Below, in pieces: positions 13,024 to 23,111 of a stretch of DNA of 64,000 nt. A program made the position numbers and the translations under genes. The stretch spans positions 62,001 through 126,000 of the forward strand of contig NZ_QGDT01000005.1 in NCBI RefSeq assembly GCF_003149085.1, given 5' to 3'. This stretch comes from Dyadobacter jejuensis (lineage in GTDB: Bacteria > Bacteroidota > Bacteroidia > Cytophagales > Spirosomataceae). Positions within the stretch are counted from its first letter, which is position 1. Each line of letters begins with the position of its first letter. The notes below the pieces were generated by a model that saw nothing but the letters and a program-made list of their open reading frames with translations, made no database searches and had not been told where the DNA came from.

Positions 13024-14034
13024 TTATTTCATTTCAAAACGTCTTAGATAAGCTACTCCCTTTCTTACTGTCATCGATATACCCCATCCCGGTACCGACT
13101 GAGCCTTATTGCCGCTTTCTAAATGGGGCCGGTAGAGTCCTGGAGCCTTAGGGATATCCTTTAGGTCGTGGTGAAGGCTCCTAAAATGGAGCCCATCTGA
13201 TGCATGGTTAATGGTAGCGTCAATAGAGGCTAAGGACGAAATTCCTTTTTGCTCCTTCCAGACCAACACCTCATGGCTATTATCTAATATAGGCGAAGGG
13301 TTCTTGATAAAAGGACCTGTCGGCCTATTGGCAAAGGCGACGCCCATTTTGGTGCGTGCCGGGCCTTGGGTGCCATCTACGATCGACCGACCTTTATAGT
13401 ATAGCCATATTTTATCATTCTCAACGAGTAAGCTGGCGTCGTCGATCCGGTAGCTGTCAAAGTTTTCTGCTTCACTGGAGATCCTCAATACCGGGTTTTC
13501 ACTAGCCCTTACAAAGGGGCCGTCGGGCCTATCAGCCACAGCCACACCTATGGCGGTAAAGTCATTTATGGAATTGTTCTCAAACTCCTTCATGGTATTT
13601 CCTGGCGTTGGTTTCACTCCAGTATAATACAAATAGTACCGCCCCTTATAGGCCAATATATTGGGTGTGAATACGGAGTGGCTGTCGAACGCTCCCTCCT
13701 CACCCAGGCCTAGAGCCATTCCCTGTTCGGTCCAGGTGTGGCCTTCGTCTTCGGAAGTGGCATACCAGATGGTACCCCAATAGCCCGAGGTTACCGGGGT
13801 ATCCATACGAGTATACCAGATATAGTATTTGTTTCCCACCTTGATGATATCACTATTATCGCGTCGGTTATAGGTGGAGTCCATTCCGATCCCGTTAATG
13901 TCTTGATACTCGAATTGAACCATCCGACGGCTAGGGCTCGAAATGCTGTTTTTGGAGGACTGACAAGAAAAAACCAGAAGAGCTATACACCATCCAAACC
14001 TTGCGATTGCTTTATTTTGAATTCTTATTTTCAT
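13024..14034 (-). CDS. Five-bladed beta-propeller glycosidase, GH117-like lipoprotein
   Basis: 336 residues with a lipoprotein signal (LLVFSC, Cys24). The N-terminal blade reads RDNSDIIKVGNKYYIWYTR, then GYWGTIWYATSEDEGHTWTE, AFDSHSVFTPNILAYKGRYY and, later, FDSYRIDDASLLVENDKIWL. These resemble family GH117, whose members remove 3,6-anhydro-L-galactose from the non-reducing end of agar-type oligosaccharides, more than classical GH43. The Asp in RDNSD and the Asp in FDSYRIDD are candidate acid/base residues. The gene lies 101 bases after a sulfatase on the same strand, which fits processing of a sulfated galactan. A GH43/GH32-like specificity cannot be excluded. Confidence 0.72.
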   Translation of the reverse strand: MKIRIQNKAIARFGWCIALLVFSCQSSKNSISSPSRRMVQFEYQDINGIGMDSTYNRRDNSDIIKVGNKYYIWYTRMDTPVTSGYWGTIWYATSEDEGHTWTEQGMALGLGEEGAFDSHSVFTPNILAYKGRYYLYYTGVKPTPGNTMKEFENNSINDFTAIGVAVADRPDGPFVRASENPVLRISSEAENFDSYRIDDASLLVENDKIWLYYKGRSIVDGTQGPARTKMGVAFANRPTGPFIKNPSPILDNSHEVLVWKEQKGISSLASIDATINHASDGLHFRSLHHDLKDIPKAPGLYRPHLESGNKAQSVPGWGISMTVRKGVAYLRRFEMK

Positions 14035-14135
14035 GAATATTTCTTAAATGTAGTAGATCGTCTGAGGAATAAAATTGAGGTGTATTTTCACTTTCTGCAA
14101 GGTTCCGTTGACGATTTTAGAATGCTTTTCGTCCG

Positions 14136-15521
14136 CTAATTGGCCGTGTTGGGCTCCGGCATTTCTGCTTTAACCCGGGCCTGCCAGGCTTCGAGCTTCA
14201 GCAGCAGGTCTTTGGTCTTATTTGTTTCGGTTGCCTGGAGGTTTTTGGTTTCGCCTACATCTTCTTTAAGGTTGAATAAGTATAATTCCTCAGACTCGAA
14301 ATCTTTGATTAGCTTCCAGTCGCCTTCGCGAATCGCAGCGGCCATGGCCAGCTCTGTGCCGCTGCGGTGATGGGGGAAGTGCCAGTACAACGGTTGGCGG
14401 GCCGTGGTACGCTCTCCACTAAGGATGGGCCATAGACTTTGGCCCTCCAATTGCCCTTCTTTGGGTAGGGGTATTTGGGCTGCCTCTAATAAGGTCGGGA
14501 AAAAATCGACGGTGGTAACGGGCTCATGACTTATTTGTTCCGCGGAAATATGGTTGGTCCAGGAAATGATCAACGGAACCCTAATCCCTCCCTCGTATAG
14601 AGATCCTTTTCGCTCTCGAAGGGGTGGGTTTTCTTGAAGACCCCCATTGTCAGAATAAAAAATGATGATGGTGTCGTCCATTAATTTCAGTTCTTTCAAT
14701 TTTCCTACGACTTTCCCAACGGCTTGGTCTAGCTTTTCGATCATCGCATAATATTTATTACCCTTATATTTGGCTACGGTGGCTTCCGGGGCTTGCATAG
14801 GGGTGTGAACCGTGTAGGTGGATAGATCTAGGAAGAAGGGGCGGTCTTTGTGTCGGACTATAAAACGGACGGCCTCATCACCAAGGCGATCGGTGAGGTA
14901 TTCGCCAGCAGGGCCATCGGGGAGGGTACCGTTTTTGTAGGGCGAAAAGTAACTTGCCGGTTGGCCATAGGCACAGCCCCCTATATTGCTGTCAAAACCA
15001 TACTTGTCGGGAAGTAGGTCGGGGTTGATTATCCCGTCGTTGCTTTGTGCCGATCCATCACCTGCCAAATGCCATTTTCCTATAAAGCCTGTAGCATAGC
15101 CATTCCTTTGAAGCAGCTGGGCGATGGTCGTCTCTTGGGAATCCAGCCGATCCACAAAATAAGCTTCCTTAAGTTTCTGCCCTTTGTTGAATTTGTCCAA
15201 ATAGGTCTGCATGCCCATGCCGGGAATATGGCAAGTAAGTTTTAAGGCTGCCGGCGATTTGCCCGTTAGCAGACTGGCCCTGGTGGGGGAACATACTGGG
15301 GCCGCCGCATAGGCATTGGTAAAGGCCATTCCATTTTTGGCTAATAGATCTATGTTAGGAGTGGATATCCCCGGCTTTTTCCCCAGATAGCCAACATCCG
15401 CATAGCCCAAATCGTCGGCTAAGATGAGAACGATATTGGGTTGGCTGGCCCTTGAGCCTTGAGCCATAACGTTGGATAAGCTTCCAATAATAAATCCAAT
15501 TATGATAAATATTTTTTGCAT
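14136..15521 (-). CDS. Secreted type I sulfatase (S1 family)
   Basis: 461 residues, signal peptide ending near residue 20 (NVMAQG). Metal motif IVLILADDLGYADVG; catalytic signature C77-S-P-T-R81 with ASLLTGKSP. FIGKWHLAGD, YTVHTPMQAP and IIFYSDNGGLQ are further active-site stretches. It is probably the first gene of a two-gene transcript with the GH117-like gene. It is separated from PUL 1 by the MarC gene and has no SusC/SusD of its own, so it may serve the same glycan as the neighbouring PULs. Confidence 0.92.
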   Translation of the reverse strand: MQKIFIIIGFIIGSLSNVMAQGSRASQPNIVLILADDLGYADVGYLGKKPGISTPNIDLLAKNGMAFTNAYAAAPVCSPTRASLLTGKSPAALKLTCHIPGMGMQTYLDKFNKGQKLKEAYFVDRLDSQETTIAQLLQRNGYATGFIGKWHLAGDGSAQSNDGIINPDLLPDKYGFDSNIGGCAYGQPASYFSPYKNGTLPDGPAGEYLTDRLGDEAVRFIVRHKDRPFFLDLSTYTVHTPMQAPEATVAKYKGNKYYAMIEKLDQAVGKVVGKLKELKLMDDTIIIFYSDNGGLQENPPLRERKGSLYEGGIRVPLIISWTNHISAEQISHEPVTTVDFFPTLLEAAQIPLPKEGQLEGQSLWPILSGERTTARQPLYWHFPHHRSGTELAMAAAIREGDWKLIKDFESEELYLFNLKEDVGETKNLQATETNKTKDLLLKLEAWQARVKAEMPEPNTAN

Positions 15522-15868: not shown

Positions 15869-16549
15869 TCAATGTTTTTTCGATTTGTTCTCTTTGAGTT
15901 TTAACTTATACCCAATATTAAAAACTAAAGGATCGCTTTCGCCTGTTCCTCCAATGGCTCGATCCTGGAATACCGATAAGTCGATAGAATTCCTTTTGGT
16001 TAAAGATATATCCACACCCGTTTTGTATCGTACCTGATCGAACCCTGTCCCAATTAAATAGAAGACATCGGCAGAGACATAGGGGGAGAAACTACTTTTA
16101 TTTTTGTAGCTAAACTCGAATTTATGCCTAAAATAACTACCAGTGGTAGTCAGCCCTGATTCATCGTCTTTAAACTGATGCTGATAGCGGAAGCGGTAAT
16201 CGAATTTTAACCAGTCGGTGATTTTATGGTCGAATTTAACATTCCCGTAGAATCGGTGGTAGGATCGGTAGTAATAATCGGTATCGGAATCATTGAGCTT
16301 CCTCTTGCCAAAATAACGGTAATTGACACTGGCTTCCAGGTATTTGGTGAACTTATACTCTAGGCCTGCCTCTCCCAAATAGGACTGCAATACACTCACG
16401 TTGTCGCTGAAGCGGGTCTGCCCACTAGCCGAAATAGAAAATCTGGAATTTAATTTTTTTTCAACTGTGGCGCCAGTCCATAGGCCCACGCCTTGCCCAT
16501 GCACCATACCGGTGATCAACAGCAAAATTAGAAGCTTATAATGTTTCAT
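15869..16549 (-). CDS. DUF2490-type outer-membrane beta-barrel protein
   Basis: 226 residues with a signal peptide (MKHYKLLILLLITGMVHGQ). The rest is made of alternating short amphipathic strands (SASGQTRFSDNV, LEASVNYRYFGKR, FKYRFRYQHQF-like segments, FEFSYKNKSSFSPYVSADVF), typical of a small outer-membrane barrel of the DUF2490 family. Its start overlaps the stop of the DUF4956 gene by four bases (ATGA), so the two are translationally coupled. Function is unknown. As the last gene of the CotH/VTC/DUF4956 operon it may form the outer-membrane part of that system; this is inference. Confidence 0.8.
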   Translation of the reverse strand: MKHYKLLILLLITGMVHGQGVGLWTGATVEKKLNSRFSISASGQTRFSDNVSVLQSYLGEAGLEYKFTKYLEASVNYRYFGKRKLNDSDTDYYYRSYHRFYGNVKFDHKITDWLKFDYRFRYQHQFKDDESGLTTTGSYFRHKFEFSYKNKSSFSPYVSADVFYLIGTGFDQVRYKTGVDISLTKRNSIDLSVFQDRAIGGTGESDPLVFNIGYKLKLKENKSKKH

Positions 16550-17211
16550 AGGACAGTGGTTTTGTATGAATGAACTTCTTCGTCTATGGCCTGCGACTGG
16601 GTAGGATAATAGTAAATGGTCATTTTGGTGGCGTCCTTCAGGAAATCGATATCCTCAATCTCTACCCGATGTACCTCCAGTCCGGTACGTTCCCTAAGGT
16701 CCTGTATCAGGGCCTCACGCTGCTGGGGGCGGATCAGATGGATGTTCTCATAGATAATGGACTTTCCTCTTTCTTTTTTCATGAGCCAATTGCCCTCCAG
16801 AAGGTGGGTTACCACCAAGATAATGGCACAGAAAAAGCTAAGCTCGTCCCAGCCTCCTTTGCTAATGGCTGAGATAAGCCCAATAGCGATTACCAAAAAC
16901 AGGTAAGTCATATCCTTGGCCGAAATTCCTTCTGTACGGTACCGGAGCATGGAGAATACGGCAAACAGACCAAAGGCGGCACCCATCGACATCTCCACTT
17001 TGTTTAACAAATAGGTGATCATAAATATCACCATGTTGAAGACGAAGAAGGTGATGAACAGATCGGTTCGCTTATAATTTTTATAATATATAAAGCGTAC
17101 CAGGATAAATACAGAGGCGAAGTTAATACTCATGCGAAGTATAAACTTTAGGGATATTTTATCCAGTAAGTCAAATGAACTGAGGGCGTCGGTGAGATGG
17201 AATAGGGACAT
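16546..17211 (-). CDS. DUF4956 integral membrane protein
   Basis: 221 residues with about four membrane segments in the first 140 residues (INFASVFILVRFIYYKNY, LFITFFVFNMVIFMITYLL, GAAFGLFAVFSML, MTYLFLVIAIGLISAI). A soluble C-terminal domain of about 75 residues follows (IIYENIHLIRPQQREALIQD). RYRTEGISAKDMTYLF is the best-conserved stretch in DUF4956 proteins. This family is repeatedly found beside VTC-domain and CotH genes. The 5' end overlaps the VTC gene by 41 bases in another frame; the long start is favoured because the first 25 residues look native (LLDKISLKFILRMSINF). The role is unknown; a partner of the VTC enzyme in the inner membrane is plausible. Confidence 0.85.
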   Translation of the reverse strand: MSLFHLTDALSSFDLLDKISLKFILRMSINFASVFILVRFIYYKNYKRTDLFITFFVFNMVIFMITYLLNKVEMSMGAAFGLFAVFSMLRYRTEGISAKDMTYLFLVIAIGLISAISKGGWDELSFFCAIILVVTHLLEGNWLMKKERGKSIIYENIHLIRPQQREALIQDLRERTGLEVHRVEIEDIDFLKDATKMTIYYYPTQSQAIDEEVHSYKTTVL

Positions 17212-17986
17212 GAATATTGGTATTTATTTTGTTGAGGAAATTAACTTTAGACTTGAAGCGGTTGGTTTTTACCTGGTCTTTGATGCTGACGACCCCTAAG
17301 CAATACTTACTGAGGCCACCACTTTTGTACCGCATCTGGTGCATGAGTTCCAGGAAAGGGGATACCGATTTCTTCTTCTCTTGCTTCACCTCTATAATGG
17401 CCAAGTGGTCATAACTTTTTTGTCGGTTTCCCGACTTGAACTTGAGATCGAGGTCGATGGTAATTCTTTCAGCGGAATGCTTGCTAACCAAGGTCAACCG
17501 GGAGTAATACACCCAGAGGCAGGGTTTAAAGTCGGACGGATCGAGGGTCGTACTCGATTTTAAAAAGGATTGCCCTTTAGGCCCAATTTCTTCCGTTTGG
17601 CTGATGGGCTCGGTTACCCGAGTCTTGACGGTACGCCCCTTGTTATTCTTGACCTTAATCTCGAAAAAGGAGGTGTTCGTGTCCACATAATTCCGGTACC
17701 GTAATTTACAGCGATTCAGACGTCCCGAATGGTGGCTATGATAAAGGTCCATATTGGGCGTGTCAAAATACAAGGTTTCATAATCGAATATGGTTAAGCC
17801 CTTCATCGTTAGGACCCTATAGTCATTTTGGACACGCTCGAAGATGTCGAGAAGGTTTTCCACGGGCATAGTGAACTTTATCTCTGCCCGATCCATTAGT
17901 TTTACCGACTCCATTTCAGCTAGTGAAATGGGGTAGAAACCAGACAGCTGCTCGACAATATTGGAATATACTTTTGAGGTTAGCAT
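17171..17986 (-). CDS. VTC-domain (polyphosphate polymerase-like) protein
   Basis: 271 residues, no signal peptide. The VTC fold is recognisable from KFTMPVENLLDIFERVQNDY, FDYETLYFDTPNMDLYHSHH, RLNRCKLRYRNY, FFEIKVKNNKGRTVKTR and, near the end, AIIEVKQEKK. These Lys/Arg/Glu-rich strands form the tunnel that binds ATP and polyphosphate in yeast Vtc4. Whether the bacterial domain makes polyphosphate is not shown by sequence. The gene starts five bases after the CotH gene and overlaps the DUF4956 gene by 41 bases, so these three are tightly coupled. Confidence 0.87.
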   Translation of the reverse strand: MLTSKVYSNIVEQLSGFYPISLAEMESVKLMDRAEIKFTMPVENLLDIFERVQNDYRVLTMKGLTIFDYETLYFDTPNMDLYHSHHSGRLNRCKLRYRNYVDTNTSFFEIKVKNNKGRTVKTRVTEPISQTEEIGPKGQSFLKSSTTLDPSDFKPCLWVYYSRLTLVSKHSAERITIDLDLKFKSGNRQKSYDHLAIIEVKQEKKKSVSPFLELMHQMRYKSGGLSKYCLGVVSIKDQVKTNRFKSKVNFLNKINTNIHVPIPSHRRPQFI

Positions 17987-17991
17987 GGCGC

Positions 17992-19419
17992 TTATTTTAA
18001 AAAGGTTTCTACTGCGGTATTTCTAGTCACTACATGGGTTTTTAAGTTACTTAGTTCCGTCTCAAAGGCGGCGGCACTACTTAGGTTAGAATATCTACTT
18101 TGTTCAGGCTCGCTTCCTGTCACATAAGGTTGAATTAGGTTATGGTATTTGTCGAATAATGCGCTCATAGTGGCAGGGACAAAAACATTCTCCTTAAATT
18201 CTTGGACATACGTTTTGTATTGGCTGTAGTACACGGCGTCGTCGGCTATATAACGGAGTAGGGGCCAGGTAGATGTCACTTCGGTCATGCTCAATGATAC
18301 CGCCGACCGACCACTTCCTGCGTTACCCCCTCCGCCGGGTCCGGTTGGAGCTTGGCTTGTGGTGGTAACCGTCATCGATTCGTTGAAATCCCAAGGGATC
18401 CAGGTTAGCTTATTGACGGGGGCATTGTACAGGTAGTGATTATGCGCCATGGCACCATATACATCCCAGTTTACGATGGTGTTGTTGACGGCTAGGTACT
18501 TCAGGAAATGGTCTACATTGAAGGTGCTTTCCAAATTGGCCCGCCATTCTGCTGCATTGGAGGTCCGGTTAGATGCGTTAAGGGCCGTAATAAAGGCTTG
18601 TACATCGCTATAGTCAGATTCTGTTTCGTTGTTTTTCTTCTCAAATTCCGATTGGGTGAAGGTCCTAAAATATGATTCAGGCTTATAGATATTCCCATCG
18701 TCTTCTCCAAACTGATCGGCTACCATTGAGTCGTCTATTACCTCTACCATGGTATAAACCCCACAGTATTTGCTCCCGGAGCCAAAATTGATATAAACCT
18801 TGTAAAAGGCCGTCCTAGCTGCTGGTACACCGGCTGCCCTGAAAATATCTGAGGCCGCTTTCTCTCTGATCAGCGAATTGTCGTTATAGGCAGGGGACAT
18901 CGACAGTTCTTTGAACCCATACAGCCGCTGATTTTTGATGGCTGGATAGTCGTCTTCATATTTATCCATATGTAGCCTAAAGGGGAGCTTGTATATCCCC
19001 GATTTCCAAATGGAAGAAAGACTGGAATTTCCCTTTAGGCGAAAGCCGACATGATTCCAGACCTTGCCGTTGAAGGTTACCGTCGTGGCCACGTATCCAG
19101 GATCCTCATCGGTGCTGGTAGTTCCTCCAGGGGCCCCTCCTGAACTCCCAAAAGATCCCATTCCGATCGAGACCATATTGGCTTGTATGGCCGACCAGTC
19201 GCCCGACGTCATGGTGATTTCCAGAGTATTGACCGATTCTTGAGGAAATATGACTTCATAGTTGGGCTCCACCTCGTTGCTATGCGTTTCGGTGGTCCAG
19301 TCAGCGTTGTCTTCAATGGGATCATCTACCACCACGTCGGTCGAAGGCGACACTTTGCAGGAAGTTAGGGCAATGGTAATTGCGATAAAAAGCTGTAAAA
19401 AGGAAATTGGAGCTTTCAT
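17992..19419 (-). CDS. CotH-family kinase-like lipoprotein (1)
   Basis: 475 residues; lipoprotein signal with Cys21 (IALTSC). CotH landmarks: VGFRLKGNSSL at 124-134, LYGFKELSMSPAYNDNSLIR at 166-185, KYCGVYTMVEVIDD at 217-230, NIYKPE at 243-248 and the metal-binding IPWDFNESM at 341-349. CotH proteins are atypical kinases that phosphorylate secreted or surface proteins. A glycine-rich stretch (GSSGGAPGGT) sits near residue 91. It is a close paralogue of the CotH gene upstream (19575-21080) and starts 155 bases after it, enough room for a second promoter; direct repeats lie in that gap. Confidence 0.9.
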   Translation of the reverse strand: MKAPISFLQLFIAITIALTSCKVSPSTDVVVDDPIEDNADWTTETHSNEVEPNYEVIFPQESVNTLEITMTSGDWSAIQANMVSIGMGSFGSSGGAPGGTTSTDEDPGYVATTVTFNGKVWNHVGFRLKGNSSLSSIWKSGIYKLPFRLHMDKYEDDYPAIKNQRLYGFKELSMSPAYNDNSLIREKAASDIFRAAGVPAARTAFYKVYINFGSGSKYCGVYTMVEVIDDSMVADQFGEDDGNIYKPESYFRTFTQSEFEKKNNETESDYSDVQAFITALNASNRTSNAAEWRANLESTFNVDHFLKYLAVNNTIVNWDVYGAMAHNHYLYNAPVNKLTWIPWDFNESMTVTTTSQAPTGPGGGGNAGSGRSAVSLSMTEVTSTWPLLRYIADDAVYYSQYKTYVQEFKENVFVPATMSALFDKYHNLIQPYVTGSEPEQSRYSNLSSAAAFETELSNLKTHVVTRNTAVETFLK

Positions 19420-19510
19420 AATTAGAAAATTTATAGTTATTGGTGTCTGAAAGCATGGGTTAATTGCTTCTATAGAGTATTTCGCTGAATTTGAGCTATT
19501 TGTTACAGTG

Positions 19511-19541
19511 TGTCGATAAATTAATAGAATCTGTCGATAAA
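19511..19541. promoter_or_regulatory. 21-bp-spaced direct repeat, candidate LytTR site upstream of CotH 1
   Basis: tgtcgataaa occurs at 19511-19520 and again, identical, at 19532-19541: a start-to-start distance of 21 bases, two helical turns. LytTR regulators bind direct repeats with this kind of spacing, and a LytTR gene lies at 22407. The specific sequence is not a known consensus, so the link is inference. Confidence 0.4.
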
Positions 19542-19574
19542 AACCCCATTTTAAAGGAGTTCGTCAGCGGTCCG

Positions 19575-21080
19575 TTATTGCATAAATGTTTTCAAGGCCT
19601 CTTTCTGCCTCGTCTTTACATGTTGCTTTAGCTCCTTAAGTTCTGCTTTGAATTCTTTATAGCCAGTCATCTGGCTATAGGGGCTTTTTTCTTCTTTGGC
19701 CGCACTGTCTAAGAGCCGATAATAACGGTCGAAGATGGTGCTCATGCGTTCAGGAGTAAACAGGGTCTGGGCAAATTCGGTAACATAGGCCCTATATCGG
19801 GCGTAGTAGGTTGGATCTTCGGCCATATGCCTAATGAGGGGCCATTGAGTTCCCACCGTTTTCAATTCAAGGTCTACCCCCTGCTTACCCCGTCCTGGGG
19901 CGTTAGCCATTCCGGCTGCACCAGGTCTTGTTCCGGCCGTTCCAGCCATGGCTGGTCGTGGTCCTGGAGGTCCTGGCCTATTGGGTTGGCCTTGGGTGGG
20001 AGGGGCCATGCCTTCTTTTTGGGTGCTCATCGCCTCGTTTTGATCCCAAGGAATCCAGTTGAGTTGTCCATTTTGTGCCTGATATAAATAATAGTTGTGT
20101 GCCATGGCACCATAAGAATCCCAAGAGACCATTAGGGTGTTCATAGCCAGCCATTTTAAAAAGCCATCTACATTTAAGGCTTGTTCCATTTCTTGGCGCC
20201 ATCTTACGGGTTCTGTGGTGCGGTAAGGCGCATTCAGGAACGTGATGAATTGCTCCACATCGGAGAAGTCGGCCTTCTTTTTATTATTTTTCTTTTCAAA
20301 TTGGGAAGCGGTGAAGGAAGCAAAAGTGGACTCTGGTTTGTAAATATTACCGTCGTCCTCTCCAAATTGATTTTTTATCATGGTGTCATCGACCACCTCC
20401 ACAATCGTATAAACTCCACAGTATTGAGTGTCATCTCCGAAGTCGATGTATACTTTACAAAAAGATGTTTGAGCAGCAGGTACACCGGCGGCTCTAAATA
20501 AATCGGAAGCCACCTTTTCGCGGATCAGGGAAGGGTCATTAAAAGCTGGCGACAAAGACAGTTCCTGAAAACCATGAAGGGATTGTTTGTCGTATTTCTT
20601 AAAATTGAGCCTAAAGGGTAATTTGTAAATACCCCTTGCCCAAGAAGTCATCAGGCTCGAATTTCCTTTTAAGCGGAATCCTACTTGGTTTAACGATAGT
20701 CCATTAAAATCTATGTCGACAGGTACATAGATCGGGTCTTCAGCCATGGCTCCTGAAGGCCCCCCACCTGGCAGCATTCCCTGAGGACCTCCCGGCGGAG
20801 GCCCCTGCCGGTTGCCACCGGGCACAGGGCTTACGTTGGAGCCTTGCTGGGCCGACCTAGCTCCGAAGGTGCCAAATTTTTCCTGCATATTGTCGTTGAT
20901 GGCATCCCAATTGGATTGGTCGACCTTGATATGCAGCGTATTGATCTTTTCATCGTTAAATACGAGACTATATTGAGGGGGCTCAAGCACTTCTTGTTCC
21001 GAATGATCGATTTGGCCCATAACCAGTGAACTTAACACCAGTAGTGTAGCCGATAGTAGGAGTTTTGTTTTTTTAGACAT
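19575..21080 (-). CDS. CotH-family kinase-like secreted protein (2) with Pro/Gly-rich insertions
   Basis: Start chosen at the ATG at 21080 (MSKKTKLLLSATLLVLSSL), which begins a clear signal peptide; 501 residues. It has the same CotH landmarks as its neighbour: VGFRLKGNSSLMTSW, LHGFQELSLSPAFNDPSLIR, YCGVYTIVEVVDD, GNIYKPES and LNWIPWDQNEAM. Here the metal motif is PWDQN instead of PWDFN. Two low-complexity insertions rich in Gly, Pro and Met stand out: one before the LKGNSS motif (RQGPPPGGPQGMLPGGGP) and one after PWDQN (QPNRPGPPGPRPAMAG and following). It is the first gene of the operon, divergent from the LytS-like gene. Confidence 0.9.
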   Translation of the reverse strand: MSKKTKLLLSATLLVLSSLVMGQIDHSEQEVLEPPQYSLVFNDEKINTLHIKVDQSNWDAINDNMQEKFGTFGARSAQQGSNVSPVPGGNRQGPPPGGPQGMLPGGGPSGAMAEDPIYVPVDIDFNGLSLNQVGFRLKGNSSLMTSWARGIYKLPFRLNFKKYDKQSLHGFQELSLSPAFNDPSLIREKVASDLFRAAGVPAAQTSFCKVYIDFGDDTQYCGVYTIVEVVDDTMIKNQFGEDDGNIYKPESTFASFTASQFEKKNNKKKADFSDVEQFITFLNAPYRTTEPVRWRQEMEQALNVDGFLKWLAMNTLMVSWDSYGAMAHNYYLYQAQNGQLNWIPWDQNEAMSTQKEGMAPPTQGQPNRPGPPGPRPAMAGTAGTRPGAAGMANAPGRGKQGVDLELKTVGTQWPLIRHMAEDPTYYARYRAYVTEFAQTLFTPERMSTIFDRYYRLLDSAAKEEKSPYSQMTGYKEFKAELKELKQHVKTRQKEALKTFMQ

Positions 21081-21313
21081 CTTAAACGTATCTTGGTGAA
21101 TCTGGTGGCCAAGGTATACGATTATTTTGGGGACATCTAGCACCTGTAGACACTGGGGCCAATTGTGTAGATGAATAGCTAAAATGGCTCCAGGGAGCCA
21201 AAAAGCCACTTTTTGGTAAAATTGACTATCCCTCTACACATTCCCTATGAATATATACACTTTGCAGAAATAGGATGGAAATGCGATACTTTTGGTTTAA
21301 AAAATAAGCATAT
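21081..21313. promoter_or_regulatory. Divergent promoter region between CotH 2 and LytS-like kinase
   Basis: A 233-base gap serving both directions. It contains a direct repeat tgtaga at 21145-21150 and 21166-21171, again 21 bases start to start, like the pair at 19511/19532. Two adjacent small inverted repeats follow: tggctcc/ggagcca (21185-21191, 21194-21200) and ccaaaaa/tttttgg (21198-21204, 21210-21216). A tacactttg element near 21260, about 50 bases before the kinase ATG, is close to the Bacteroidota -7 box (TAnnTTTG) but has three bases in the gap. Confidence 0.45.
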
Positions 21314-22414
21314 ATGAAATATTTCGAACGTTATCTGCTGCTATTAGGGATGTTGGTTTTCCTGCTATCTCCATTCCTTCTTTCCCCTTTTTCAGTCTTT
21401 GAAGCCTTCCAATACCCACAATACCAAAATGTGCTTTTGGCCAAAATAGTCATCAATGTACTCCTTATAGGAGTCTTTATTTTTAACCTCAAGGTTTTGA
21501 CTCCACGCTTGTTAGACAATAAGCGTGCGGTAGAATTTGCCTTCGTATTACTGGCTTTGCTCGTCTGCTTTTTAGTTGTCGACACTTTTTTGATGCGCCA
21601 GGTGCAAAGTCCATTTCCTGGCCCTGGGCTAGGCAATGGACCTATTGGAGAGCCACGCCCACCCCGGCCTAGGCCCGACGGGGGTATATGGGGAGGACTG
21701 GTTAACTTTCCGCAACTGATCGGCAACCTTATTCTATTCCTAGTCATCGTGTTGTCGAGTTCTATCCTTGTTCTGCTCAGGGAAAGGTTGCGCGAAGAGG
21801 ATTTAAGAAAACAGATTCTATATGAAAAAGTAAAAGCAGAACTCTCGGTTCTGAAGTTGCAAATAAGCCCACATTTTTTGTTTAACACCCTCAATAACAT
21901 CCGGTATTTGGCTAGGAGAAAATCCGATAAAACCGAAGAAGCCGTGGTGGAACTGGCGCAGTTGCTCCGCTATATGATTTACCAAGTCAACGACGATCGG
22001 GTACCTTTATCAAAGGAAATAGAGTATTTGCAACGTTATATAAAATTGCAGCAAATGCGGCTCCAAGCTCATACCCAGGTGCATTTTAAGTTTGCTGGAA
22101 ACGCCGAACGTCATAGTATCGAGCCTTTGCTATTTATCCCCTTCGTCGAAAATGCCTTTAAATATGGCGTTCATGCCCATGAAGCCTCAAACATCACCAT
22201 AGAGCTCACGGTGAGCGATACGGAACTACATTTTCTTTGTGAGAATAGCACATTTGGAGGTGCGGTACTGCCCGAATTAGGAGCTTCCGGTGTGGGAATT
22301 GCGAATGTTAAAAAAAGACTTCAACTTTACTACCCCCATCGGCATCGGCTTAGCCTTAGCGAGCTCGATGGGAAGTATGGTGTAGACCTTACCCTTCAAT
22401 TGACCCATGGATAA
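21314..22414 (+). CDS. LytS-type sensor histidine kinase
   Basis: 366 residues with four membrane segments (about 8-28, 40-60, 72-92, 130-155). Then comes the His_kinase domain with the phospho-acceptor in LQISPHFLFNTLNNIRYL (His187) and the ATP-binding N-box EPLLFIPFVENAFKYGV. The loop between segments 3 and 4 (about 100-128) is a Pro/Gly run (FPGPGLGNGP, PRPPRPRPDGG), unusual for this class and similar in composition to the insertions of the CotH protein encoded divergently. The stop overlaps the start of the response-regulator gene by eight bases, so the two are coupled. Confidence 0.93.
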   Translation: MKYFERYLLLLGMLVFLLSPFLLSPFSVFEAFQYPQYQNVLLAKIVINVLLIGVFIFNLKVLTPRLLDNKRAVEFAFVLLALLVCFLVVDTFLMRQVQSPFPGPGLGNGPIGEPRPPRPRPDGGIWGGLVNFPQLIGNLILFLVIVLSSSILVLLRERLREEDLRKQILYEKVKAELSVLKLQISPHFLFNTLNNIRYLARRKSDKTEEAVVELAQLLRYMIYQVNDDRVPLSKEIEYLQRYIKLQQMRLQAHTQVHFKFAGNAERHSIEPLLFIPFVENAFKYGVHAHEASNITIELTVSDTELHFLCENSTFGGAVLPELGASGVGIANVKKRLQLYYPHRHRLSLSELDGKYGVDLTLQLTHG

Positions 22415-23111
22415 AATAAAATGCATTGCTATTGACGACGAGCCCTTCGCTCTCGAATTGATAAGTGAAGATATTCAGCGATTAGATTTTCTTGAACTTG
22501 TGGGTTCCTTTCCGGGGCCCGATGCCGCCGGCAACCTGCTCAAAGAAGGGGAGGTCGACCTTATCTTCCTCGATATTCAGATGCCCACCATCACCGGAAT
22601 AGAGTTCTTGAAGTCGACGCCTGTTCATCCCATGGTCATTCTGACGACCGCTTACGAGCAATATGCACTAGATGGTTTCGAGCTCAATGTAGTGGACTAT
22701 CTCGTAAAACCCATTCCTTTTACTCGTTTTCAGCAAGCTGCCGAACGGGCTTTAAATCTGTTTCAATTGAACAAGCTGGCCAGTACTCAGCAGCCACTTC
22801 CACCCATCTATGTGAATACCCAATACCAAAAAGTAAAGATCGCTCAAGAGGATATCAGCTATGTTGAAGGTATGAAAGACTATGTCAAGATATATATCGA
22901 GAACCAGTCGGAGCCTATACTCACCCGTATGAACTTAAAAAAGATGGAGTCCCTGTTGTCCCCAGAGCGGTTTTGTCGGGTTCATAATTCCTTTGTGGTC
23001 CCCTTAGAGAAAATCACAAGCTCCTTACGGTCCAAGCTATTCCTAGGTTCGGTAGAAATCCCGATCGGGGAGAAGTTTGCCGAGCATTTTAGAGAAAGGT
23101 ATCAGCAGTAG
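22407..23111 (+). CDS. LytTR-family response regulator
   Basis: 234 residues. The receiver domain (1-120) has the acidic pair AIDDEP and the phosphorylation site Asp56 in LIFLDIQMP, then TTAYEQYALDGFELNVVDYL and the KP loop. The LytTR DNA-binding domain (about 130-232) contains YVEGMKDYVKIY, KKMESLLSPERFCRVHNSFVV and IPIGEKFAEHF. It partners the kinase gene that overlaps its start. Its likely targets are its own promoter region and the divergent CotH operon, where 21-bp-spaced direct repeats are seen. Confidence 0.94.
   Translation: MDKIKCIAIDDEPFALELISEDIQRLDFLELVGSFPGPDAAGNLLKEGEVDLIFLDIQMPTITGIEFLKSTPVHPMVILTTAYEQYALDGFELNVVDYLVKPIPFTRFQQAAERALNLFQLNKLASTQQPLPPIYVNTQYQKVKIAQEDISYVEGMKDYVKIYIENQSEPILTRMNLKKMESLLSPERFCRVHNSFVVPLEKITSSLRSKLFLGSVEIPIGEKFAEHFRERYQQ

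What the first reader, a model, noticed from the sequence alone, without database searches (positions are those of the whole stretch)
15869..23111. CotH x2 / VTC / DUF4956 / DUF2490 operon with a divergent LytS-LytTR pair
Two CotH kinase-like surface proteins, a VTC polyphosphate-polymerase-like domain, a DUF4956 membrane protein and a small outer-membrane barrel are joined by overlaps of 41 and 4 bases and gaps of 5 bases, which implies one co-made system across both membranes. CotH, VTC and DUF4956 genes are known to cluster, but the combined function is not established. A reasonable hypothesis is phosphate or polyphosphate transfer to surface proteins, controlled by the divergent sensor kinase.
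Basis: partly seen in the sequence, partly recalled or inferred. Interest (0 to 1): 0.72.

Follow-up and report, generated by a model that had tools for sequence, protein, structure and literature searches.

The report
Likely polyphosphate synthesis and export operon
A Bacteroidota bacterium carries a conserved gene set that looks built to make a chain of phosphates inside the cell and pass it across both membranes to surface kinases, which, if true, would explain how some bacteria could put polyphosphate on their surface.

Summary
In detail: seven genes at 15869-23111 encode DUF2490, DUF4956, VTC, two CotH proteins and a divergent LytS-LytTR pair. The core is not chance. In 121 genomes of the family, VTC over cut-off occurs only where DUF4956 does (45 of 52 against 0 of 69), and 54 of 56 VTC matches lie within 1 kb of one. 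The VTC tunnel residues are near-invariant in 123 distinct proteins. New here: the outer-membrane slot holds DUF2490 in 43 of 54 Bacteroidota loci, an unrelated OprO/OprP-type porin in 11 of 12 Gammaproteobacteria, and neither barrel in 9 of 9 Chloroflexota. Three alphaproteobacterial plasmids add a phytase-like gene, one of them also a phosphate transporter. DUF2490 is predicted with high confidence as a barrel whose conserved Arg/Lys residues probably face the lumen. The LytS-LytTR pair is a lineage-specific addition (10 of 141 loci), but the only two exact copies of its deduced repeat in the genome lie here. Best reading: cytosolic polyphosphate (or oligophosphate) synthesis coupled to transport across both membranes, with exported CotH kinases acting outside. 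Polyphosphate as the CotH phosphate donor is untested. Direction of flow is unproven; no activity was measured.

The parts
15869..16549 (-). DUF2490 protein: predicted outer-membrane beta-barrel with a probably basic lumen; last gene of the operon
   Evidence: Pfam E 1.9e-25; AF2 pLDDT 92.8, 11 strands called; 13 of 14 conserved strand K/R on the hydrophilic face; barrel matches including KdgM
16546..17211 (-). DUF4956 protein: five predicted membrane helices plus a C-terminal ferredoxin-like domain; putative inner-membrane conduit or anchor
   Evidence: Pfam E 1.2e-53; AF2 pLDDT 85.9; no PDB match at E <= 0.001; R90 invariant and R92 at least 90% in the family alignment; of the two only R92 is invariant in the cross-phylum alignment
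17171..17986 (-). VTC-type triphosphate-tunnel domain: putative polyphosphate polymerase, cytosolic
   Evidence: Pfam E 9.3e-29; weak profile matches to Vtc2/3/4 chains; tunnel residues near-invariant in 123 sequences
17992..19419 (-). CotH kinase, lipoprotein type (lipobox LTSC, by eye)
   Evidence: Pfam E 2.3e-65; profile match to PDB 5jd9 CotH E 1e-14, catalytic Asp conserved as D319 and D344
19575..21080 (-). CotH kinase, secreted type (signal peptide without lipobox, by eye), next to the LytS gene
   Evidence: Pfam E 3e-65 on the longer ORF 19575-21209; LytS-adjacent CotH proteins inspected in relatives mostly lack a lipobox, exception L049
21145..21171 (+). Direct repeat TGTAGA-N15-TGTAGA, probable LytTR site
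   Evidence: Exact match, none in 100 shuffles of the window; 21-bp spacing enriched
21233..21259 (-). Second direct repeat, opposite strand, towards CotH
21314..22414 (+). LytS-type sensor histidine kinase, divergent
   Evidence: Pfam His_kinase E 1.3e-25; neighbourhood linkage
22407..23111 (+). LytTR-family response regulator
   Evidence: Pfam Response_reg and LytTR

Best explanation
A trans-envelope phosphate-polymer machine, most likely polyphosphate synthesis coupled to export. (1) The VTC tunnel enzyme makes polyphosphate, or a shorter oligophosphate, from ATP in the cytosol (inferred from conserved catalytic residues). (2) DUF4956, encoded in overlap with it, anchors it and passes the chain through the inner membrane, as the membrane helices of the eukaryotic VTC complex do (inferred). 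(3) A basic-lined outer-membrane barrel (DUF2490 here, an OprO/OprP-type porin in Gammaproteobacteria) lets the polyanion cross the outer membrane (barrel predicted, transport inferred). (4) Two exported CotH kinases phosphorylate envelope or surface substrates at this site; polyphosphate may be their donor (speculative). (5) In this lineage a divergent LytS-LytTR pair controls the operon through two repeats in the shared promoter region (site enrichment shown, binding inferred).
For: VTC over cut-off found only with DUF4956 (45 of 52 against 0 of 69 genomes; 54 of 56 matches within 1 kb). Tunnel residues in 119-123 of 123 distinct VTC proteins, including the equivalents of Vtc4 R264 and R266 (those two and E426 were replaced to inactivate Vtc4 in PMC9911596, passages read). 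Barrel slot: DUF2490 in 43 of 54 Bacteroidota, Porin_O_P in 11 of 12 Gammaproteobacteria, neither in 9 of 9 Chloroflexota; the gamma barrels match Porin O of the PDB at E 5.6e-48. Phosphate neighbours: a phytase-like gene after DUF4956-VTC in three alphaproteobacterial plasmids, and in one of them a PiT transporter (E 1.7e-106). DUF2490 barrel with 13 of 14 conserved strand K/R on the hydrophilic face. The genome already has two PPK1-family matches, so storage alone would not need VTC. CotH catalytic Asp pair invariant in 23 of 23. Two exact LytTR-like repeats in the whole genome, both here.
Against: No biochemical data and no complex prediction. OprP/OprO are described as uptake channels for phosphate or pyrophosphate (PMC9769906, passages read), so flow could be inward. 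No periplasmic bridge was identified. DUF4956 occurs without VTC over cut-off in 7 of 52 genomes (one of them, G010, has a VTC fragment at a contig end); there it can be followed by a TonB-type barrel (L069, L077; Pfam OMP_b-brl_3) or lie directly after CotH (L070), so it is not only a VTC partner. DUF4956 has no detectable relative in the PDB. 11 of 54 Bacteroidota and one of 12 gammaproteobacterial loci lack the expected adjacent barrel match. The match of VTC to solved Vtc chains is weak (E 0.005-0.05). The two-component pair is near DUF4956 in only 14 of 141 loci.
Confidence: 0.45

Rival explanations
1. Phosphate or polyphosphate uptake and trapping: the barrel or porin and partner transporters bring in phosphate or short polyphosphate, and VTC-DUF4956 stores it as polymer at the inner membrane. 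CotH has a separate role.
For: OprO/OprP are uptake channels (PMC9769906, passages read); PiT and phytase-like genes follow DUF4956-VTC in alphaproteobacterial plasmids; an acid phosphatase (opposite strand) and phn genes lie nearby in Deinococcus QL22; one of 104 operon neighbours matches PBP_like_2, a binding-protein family (which one was not identified).
Against: Exported CotH kinases are frequent partners (10 of 12 Gammaproteobacteria); two PPK1-family matches could already serve storage in this genome. I made no dedicated search for phosphate importers around the Bacteroidota and gammaproteobacterial operons.
Confidence: 0.25
2. Accessory module of exopolysaccharide production: CotH, VTC and DUF4956 modify or regulate a surface glycan, as could be the case for the pelDEADAFG-linked set.
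For: CotH, polyphosphate polymerase and DUF4956 genes are contiguous with pel genes in streptococci, clostridia and bifidobacteria (PMC7112168, passages read); two of 104 operon neighbours are dTDP-rhamnose epimerases and one a Cthe_2159 carbohydrate-binding protein.
Against: The nine window proteins scanned hold no glycosyltransferase over cut-off, and none is among the 25 families shown of 78 found in the 104 neighbours (53 families unseen); phosphate-type porins and a phosphate transporter are not explained.
Confidence: 0.12
3. The bacterial VTC domain is not a polymerase but another tunnel enzyme (a tripolyphosphatase or a nucleotide-dependent enzyme), and CotH uses exported ATP.
For: The wider tunnel-enzyme superfamily has typically phosphatase functions (PMC8233210, abstract in the search listing); the match to solved Vtc2/3/4 chains is weak (E 0.005-0.05).
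Against: Pfam VTC match far over cut-off and conservation of the residues used to inactivate Vtc4; partnership with a membrane protein and, in Gammaproteobacteria, a phosphate-type porin.
Confidence: 0.13

Closest known systems
Eukaryotic VTC complex (Vtc1/Vtc3/Vtc4)
   Same: VTC tunnel domain with the basic tunnel residues; a multi-helix membrane part that could take the product; conserved arginines near the predicted cytosolic side of the membrane protein, compare the basic TM1 channel of Vtc (PMC9911596, passages read)
   Different: No SPX domain and no other Pfam domain in the VTC protein; the membrane part is a separate protein, DUF4956, with no Pfam match to another family; adds an outer-membrane barrel and exported kinases
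CotH-PPP-DUF4956(-DUF4832) accessory genes of pelDEADAFG (PMC7112168)
   Same: CotH, polyphosphate polymerase and DUF4956 in one cluster
   Different: No pel genes or DUF4832 among the nine window proteins scanned; outer-membrane barrel and LytS-LytTR instead
CotH spore-coat kinase of Bacillus
   Same: Profile match (5jd9, E 1e-14) and both catalytic Asp (D228, D251; PMC7821199, passages read)
   Different: Exported lipoprotein and secreted forms with Gly/Pro-rich inserts; substrate unknown
OprO/OprP phosphate porins of Pseudomonas
   Same: Relatives fill the barrel slot of the gammaproteobacterial version of the operon
   Different: DUF2490, in this window, is a different and shorter barrel; resemblance is in operon position and conserved basic residues only

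Membership tests
VTC-type polyphosphate polymerase | VTC domain over curated cut-off | tested here: met
   E 9.3e-29, 101.1 bits against cut-off 23
VTC-type polyphosphate polymerase | Basic tunnel and catalytic residues (K200, R264, R266, K281, E426, K458 of Vtc4) | tested here: met
   K37, R96, R98, K111 align to Vtc4 chain 3g3q (numbering offset 185 fits R264/R266 named in PMC9911596); E199 and K227 assigned by order and motif only (Vtc4 numbers K200, K281, K458 are recalled); conserved in 119-123 of 123
VTC-type polyphosphate polymerase | SPX domain | tested here: not met
   Only the VTC domain matched in Pfam
VTC-type polyphosphate polymerase | Polyphosphate synthesis from ATP | not testable with these tools
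   needs enzyme assay
CotH kinase | Catalytic Asp228 and Asp251 | tested here: met
   D319 and D344 invariant in 23 of 23; roles of D228/D251 from PMC7821199 (passages read)
CotH kinase | Protein kinase activity | not testable with these tools
   needs assay
Pel-associated CotH-PPP-DUF4956 set | Contiguous pelDEADAFG and DUF4832 | tested here: not met
   Nine window proteins scanned: the neighbours downstream are a sulfatase and a GH43-type protein, no DUF4832
LytS-LytTR two-component system | His_kinase sensor plus receiver-LytTR regulator in tandem | tested here: met
LytS-LytTR two-component system | Paired direct repeats in the target promoter | tested here: met
   two exact repeats in the genome, both in 21081-21313; binding not tested; that LytTR sites are such repeats is recalled
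MgtC family (considered for DUF4956) | Profile similarity to MgtC | tested here: not met
   hhalign probability 0.5% and 0.2%

The most novel reading that the evidence does not exclude
A bacterial counterpart of the VTC complex spanning two membranes: VTC-DUF4956 polymerises phosphate and threads it through the inner membrane, a basic barrel passes it through the outer membrane, and the exported polyphosphate is the energy-rich phosphate donor for CotH kinases that have no ATP outside the cell.
Probability: 0.14. Interest if true: 0.92.

Novelty: new variant of a known kind. Interest (0 to 1): 0.64.

Why it matters
How bacteria put polyphosphate on the cell surface, and how exported kinases get their phosphate without ATP, are open questions as far as I know (recalled, not searched). 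This operon offers named parts for both: a polymerase, an inner-membrane partner, an outer-membrane barrel and exported kinases, here under a local regulator, with relatives in named cultured species such as Runella aurantiaca and Larkinella humicola. The exchange of two unrelated barrels in the same operon position, one of them of a phosphate-channel family, makes a phosphate-polymer transport function directly testable in lab strains.

Tried and rejected
DUF4956 as a MgtC-family protein: a resemblance by eye (Gly-rich helix, ferredoxin-like tail); profile comparison gave 0.5% and 0.2% probability; rejected.

VTC-DUF4956 fusion proteins: long ORFs in L125, L159 and L053 looked like fusions. 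Reading L125 and L159 suggested that the N-terminal part is a wrong-frame reading over an overlapping VTC gene; L053 was taken to be the same from its overlapping ORFs. My overlap filter hid VTC there, so the counts were redone without it.

Solved relatives of DUF4956: none by sequence below E 0.4 or by fold at E <= 0.001.

Repeat search: the first genome pattern was mis-spaced by one base and missed the window's own sites; repeated, where up to one mismatch gave seven places against one for the backwards-read control. Four of the five one-mismatch places lie inside ORFs and one just before an SDR-like ORF (by eye), so no other target is claimed. The half-site was chosen by eye from the same sequences and the shuffles keep only base content, so its significance is overstated somewhat. 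Three of seven loci (L039, L054, L062) show no 21-bp pair at one mismatch per half-site, and L049 gives three of the eight pairs. L044 and L050 were dropped before the count as near-duplicates of L039. With two mismatches allowed the window holds two matches (both exact) against 0.66 expected, reached by 18 of 100 shuffles.

Limits on counts: 52 regions were fetched for the 64 DUF4956 match places, some cut by contig ends and L060 by my own coordinates. Porin_O_P counts a match anywhere in the locus; the listed positions are directly downstream of DUF4956. Of 144 operon neighbours listed, 104 were aligned and scanned; the porins, near-duplicates and some others were left out. Of the 31 LytS relatives, 20 were fetched, nine judged, two (G069, G080) not examined.
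Full report
OBSERVATION. Overlaps of 4 and 41 bases and the 5-base gap are right; the two CotH genes are 155 bases apart; the upstream CotH probably starts at 21080.

HOST. The window lies in contig C5 of a 5.76 Mb genome. None of the nine other same-genus genomes in the sample has DUF4956, so the operon is patchy within the genus. Of the 45 other DUF2490 sequences aligned, the closest (73%) is from Dyadobacter tibetensis, whose locus L149 has the same two CotH types and the divergent pair.

NOT CHANCE. In 121 genomes of the family, DUF4956 is in 52 and VTC over cut-off in 45, all of them among the 52 (Fisher p 3.7e-26; related genomes are not independent). 54 of 56 VTC matches lie within 1 kb of a DUF4956 match; of the other two one is a contig-end fragment and one is below cut-off. 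CotH (94 of 121) and DUF2490 (116 of 121) are common families, so their evidence is position: within 4 kb in 25 of 53 and within 800 bp in 39 of 53 family loci including the window, all on the same strand. Both CotH matches of the window's genome are in this operon. Among 14 control genomes VTC and DUF4956 ring in the same three (Bacteroides ihuae, Corynebacterium glutamicum, Methanosarcina acetivorans).

ACROSS PHYLA. Seventeen plasmid records hold DUF4956. Of the eight opened, Deinococcus taeanensis has CotH-VTC-DUF4956; Nitratireductor has DUF4956-VTC-PiT transporter-phytase-like; Shinella and Aminobacter have DUF4956-VTC-phytase-like; Deinococcus QL22 has VTC-DUF4956 near an acid phosphatase and phn genes; Pseudoalteromonas has CotH and VTC remnants, DUF4956 and a Porin_O_P gene; two actinobacterial records came without gene tables, but both hold a VTC match downstream of DUF4956. 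In the 80 GTDB loci, a VTC match lies within 300 bp in 52 of 54 Bacteroidota, 11 of 12 Gammaproteobacteria (the twelfth, L111, is cut by its contig start) and 9 of 9 Chloroflexota; every such VTC is on the DUF4956 strand. The barrel slot is what matters: DUF2490 within 800 bp in 43, 0 and 0; Porin_O_P in 0, 11 and 0. The gamma barrels match Pfam Porin_O_P at E 3e-39 to 2e-47 (two, and the Pseudoalteromonas one, tested) and Porin O of the PDB at 5.6e-48 (11-sequence profile). By title six of the nine Chloroflexota loci are Anaerolineae or Anaerolineaceae, one Aggregatilineales, two only Chloroflexi; such bacteria are held to have one membrane (recalled). A slot filled by unrelated barrels in two diderm groups and by neither in the third fits an outer-membrane function for the same product; other kinds of barrel were not searched for, and the single Delongbacteria locus has a different barrel-like gene there (L163). 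OprP and OprO pass phosphate and pyrophosphate (PMC9769906, passages read), though porin-like proteins of this kind can have other roles (ExtI, PMC5877670, abstract in the search listing only).

PARTS. VTC: aligned to Vtc4 chain 3g3q, window K37, R96, R98 and K111 fall on chain residues 15, 79, 81 and 96 (my count), which with an offset of 185 are K200, R264, R266 and K281. R264, R266 and E426 were replaced to inactivate Vtc4 in PMC9911596 (passages read). In 123 distinct VTC proteins K37 is K in 119, R96 is R in 123, R98 in 122, K111 is K in 123, R163 is R in 123, D178 is D in 123, E199 is E in 122, K227 is K in 123; E199 as E426 is by order and motif. DUF4956: five predicted membrane helices and a C-terminal ferredoxin-like domain, pLDDT 85.9. 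By the positive-inside rule the C-terminus and R90/R92 would lie on the cytosolic side (inference). R92 is invariant also in the cross-phylum alignment, R90 is not. DUF2490: barrel, pLDDT 92.8, 11 strands called (an even number would be expected); 13 of 14 conserved K/R positions within strands are on the hydrophilic face (facing the lumen is inferred, and the residues themselves help define that face). Fold matches are barrels, with KdgM (TM 0.55 by target, 0.44 by query) and BrkA (0.50-0.53) among the size-matched ones. CotH: profile match to 5jd9 at 1e-14; D319 and D344 fall on the catalytic Asp pair and are invariant in 23 of 23 (PMC7821199, passages read). In the window one CotH is lipoprotein-like and next to VTC, the other has a plain signal peptide and is next to LytS. 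The LytS-adjacent CotH of L039, L044, L050, L054, L062, L149, L180, L182, L183 and L184 also lack a lipobox by eye; L049, with a single CotH, is lipoprotein-like.

REGULATION. The pair is not general: both genes lie near DUF4956 in 14 of 141 loci, divergent upstream in 10. But the 31 best full-length non-self relatives of the LytS protein in the family (E <= 1.8e-71) sit beside CotH (within 2.2 kb) in 13 genomes, in G094, G066 and G110 on a contig other than that of DUF4956, and beside a DUF2490 gene in three more (G027, G085, G102). Those DUF2490 proteins are 68-73% identical to an operon DUF2490 (L049), and in G027 and G102 the DUF4956 operon itself has no adjacent DUF2490 match (L055, L056). 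Four others sit beside TonB-type barrel genes with Gly/Pro-rich starts (two checked in Pfam: OMP_b-brl_3) and two beside Peptidase_S41 genes; the rest are other, unplaced or unexamined. The shared promoter region holds TGTAGA repeats 21 bp apart: 8 pairs in seven loci against 0.23 expected and at most 4 in 500 shuffles, seen in four of the seven. The extended repeat occurs exactly twice in the 5.76 Mb genome, both here, one per strand. So in this lineage the pair looks like a dedicated local regulator.

MECHANISM. The most economical reading is cytosolic polyphosphate synthesis coupled to passage through DUF4956 and then the barrel, with CotH kinases outside. Shown: gene linkage, residue conservation, barrel replacement, predicted folds, repeat sites. 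Inferred: product identity, direction, conduit role of DUF4956, substrate and donor of CotH. The strongest rival is uptake and trapping of phosphate. The genome holds two PPK1-family matches, which weakens a pure storage role. DUF4956 without VTC, followed by an OMP_b-brl_3 barrel (L069, L077), shows that the membrane protein has other settings too.

KNOWN OR NEW. The CotH-polyphosphate polymerase-DUF4956 cluster is in print as a pel accessory set whose role was left open (PMC7112168, passages read); VTC-domain and CotH genes are also reported together in Clostridium perfringens (PMC2879425, passages read; PMC11677781, search listing only). The word DUF4956 occurs in three papers of the library. 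I found no paper on the barrel association or an export model; searches, in a library without most subscription journals or preprints.

OPERON NEIGHBOURS. In 104 co-directional neighbours of the GTDB loci the commonest Pfam matches are type IX secretion tails and fn3_3 (11 each); one neighbour matches PBP_like_2; no glycosyltransferase is among the 25 of 78 families shown. Two uncharacterised exported families recur: an approximately 160-190 aa protein with YD-like repeats (13 of 52 family loci, 33 of 80 GTDB loci) and an approximately 140 aa lipoprotein (0 of 52, 31 of 80); neither is in the window near DUF4956.

CHANGES AFTER CHECK.

Noticed in passing
L092:6603-7172 and relatives: Exported 160-190 aa protein with YD-like repeats near DUF4956, often just before VTC, in 13 of 52 family and 33 of 80 GTDB loci; absent from the window.
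   Followed up: partly
L092:6172-6591 and relatives: Approximately 140 aa lipoprotein with an acidic YIIYGDD stretch near DUF4956 in 31 of 80 GTDB loci, 18 with and 13 without CotH.
   Followed up: partly
L177, L179, L188, L189: Relatives of the window's LytS gene diverge from TonB-type barrel genes whose start is Gly/Pro-rich, reminiscent of the Gly/Pro-rich insert in CotH (L177 and L188 are OMP_b-brl_3).
   Followed up: partly
L069:7052-9673, L077:10374-12479: DUF4956 without VTC is followed directly by an OMP_b-brl_3 TonB-type barrel, the same family that stands beside some LytS relatives.
   Followed up: partly
L059, L066, L074, L081: A second VTC-DUF4956 pair without adjacent DUF2490 in genus g32 (Runella aurantiaca's genus); in L059 it lies downstream of a Clp-type AAA protein gene.
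   Followed up: no
L084:8303-9588: Pseudoalteromonas plasmid copy with only remnants of CotH and VTC before an intact DUF4956 and Porin_O_P gene.
   Followed up: partly
window 13024-15521: Sulfatase and GH43-type genes downstream on the same strand, separated from DUF2490 by about 350 bases; probably a separate carbohydrate locus.
   Followed up: no
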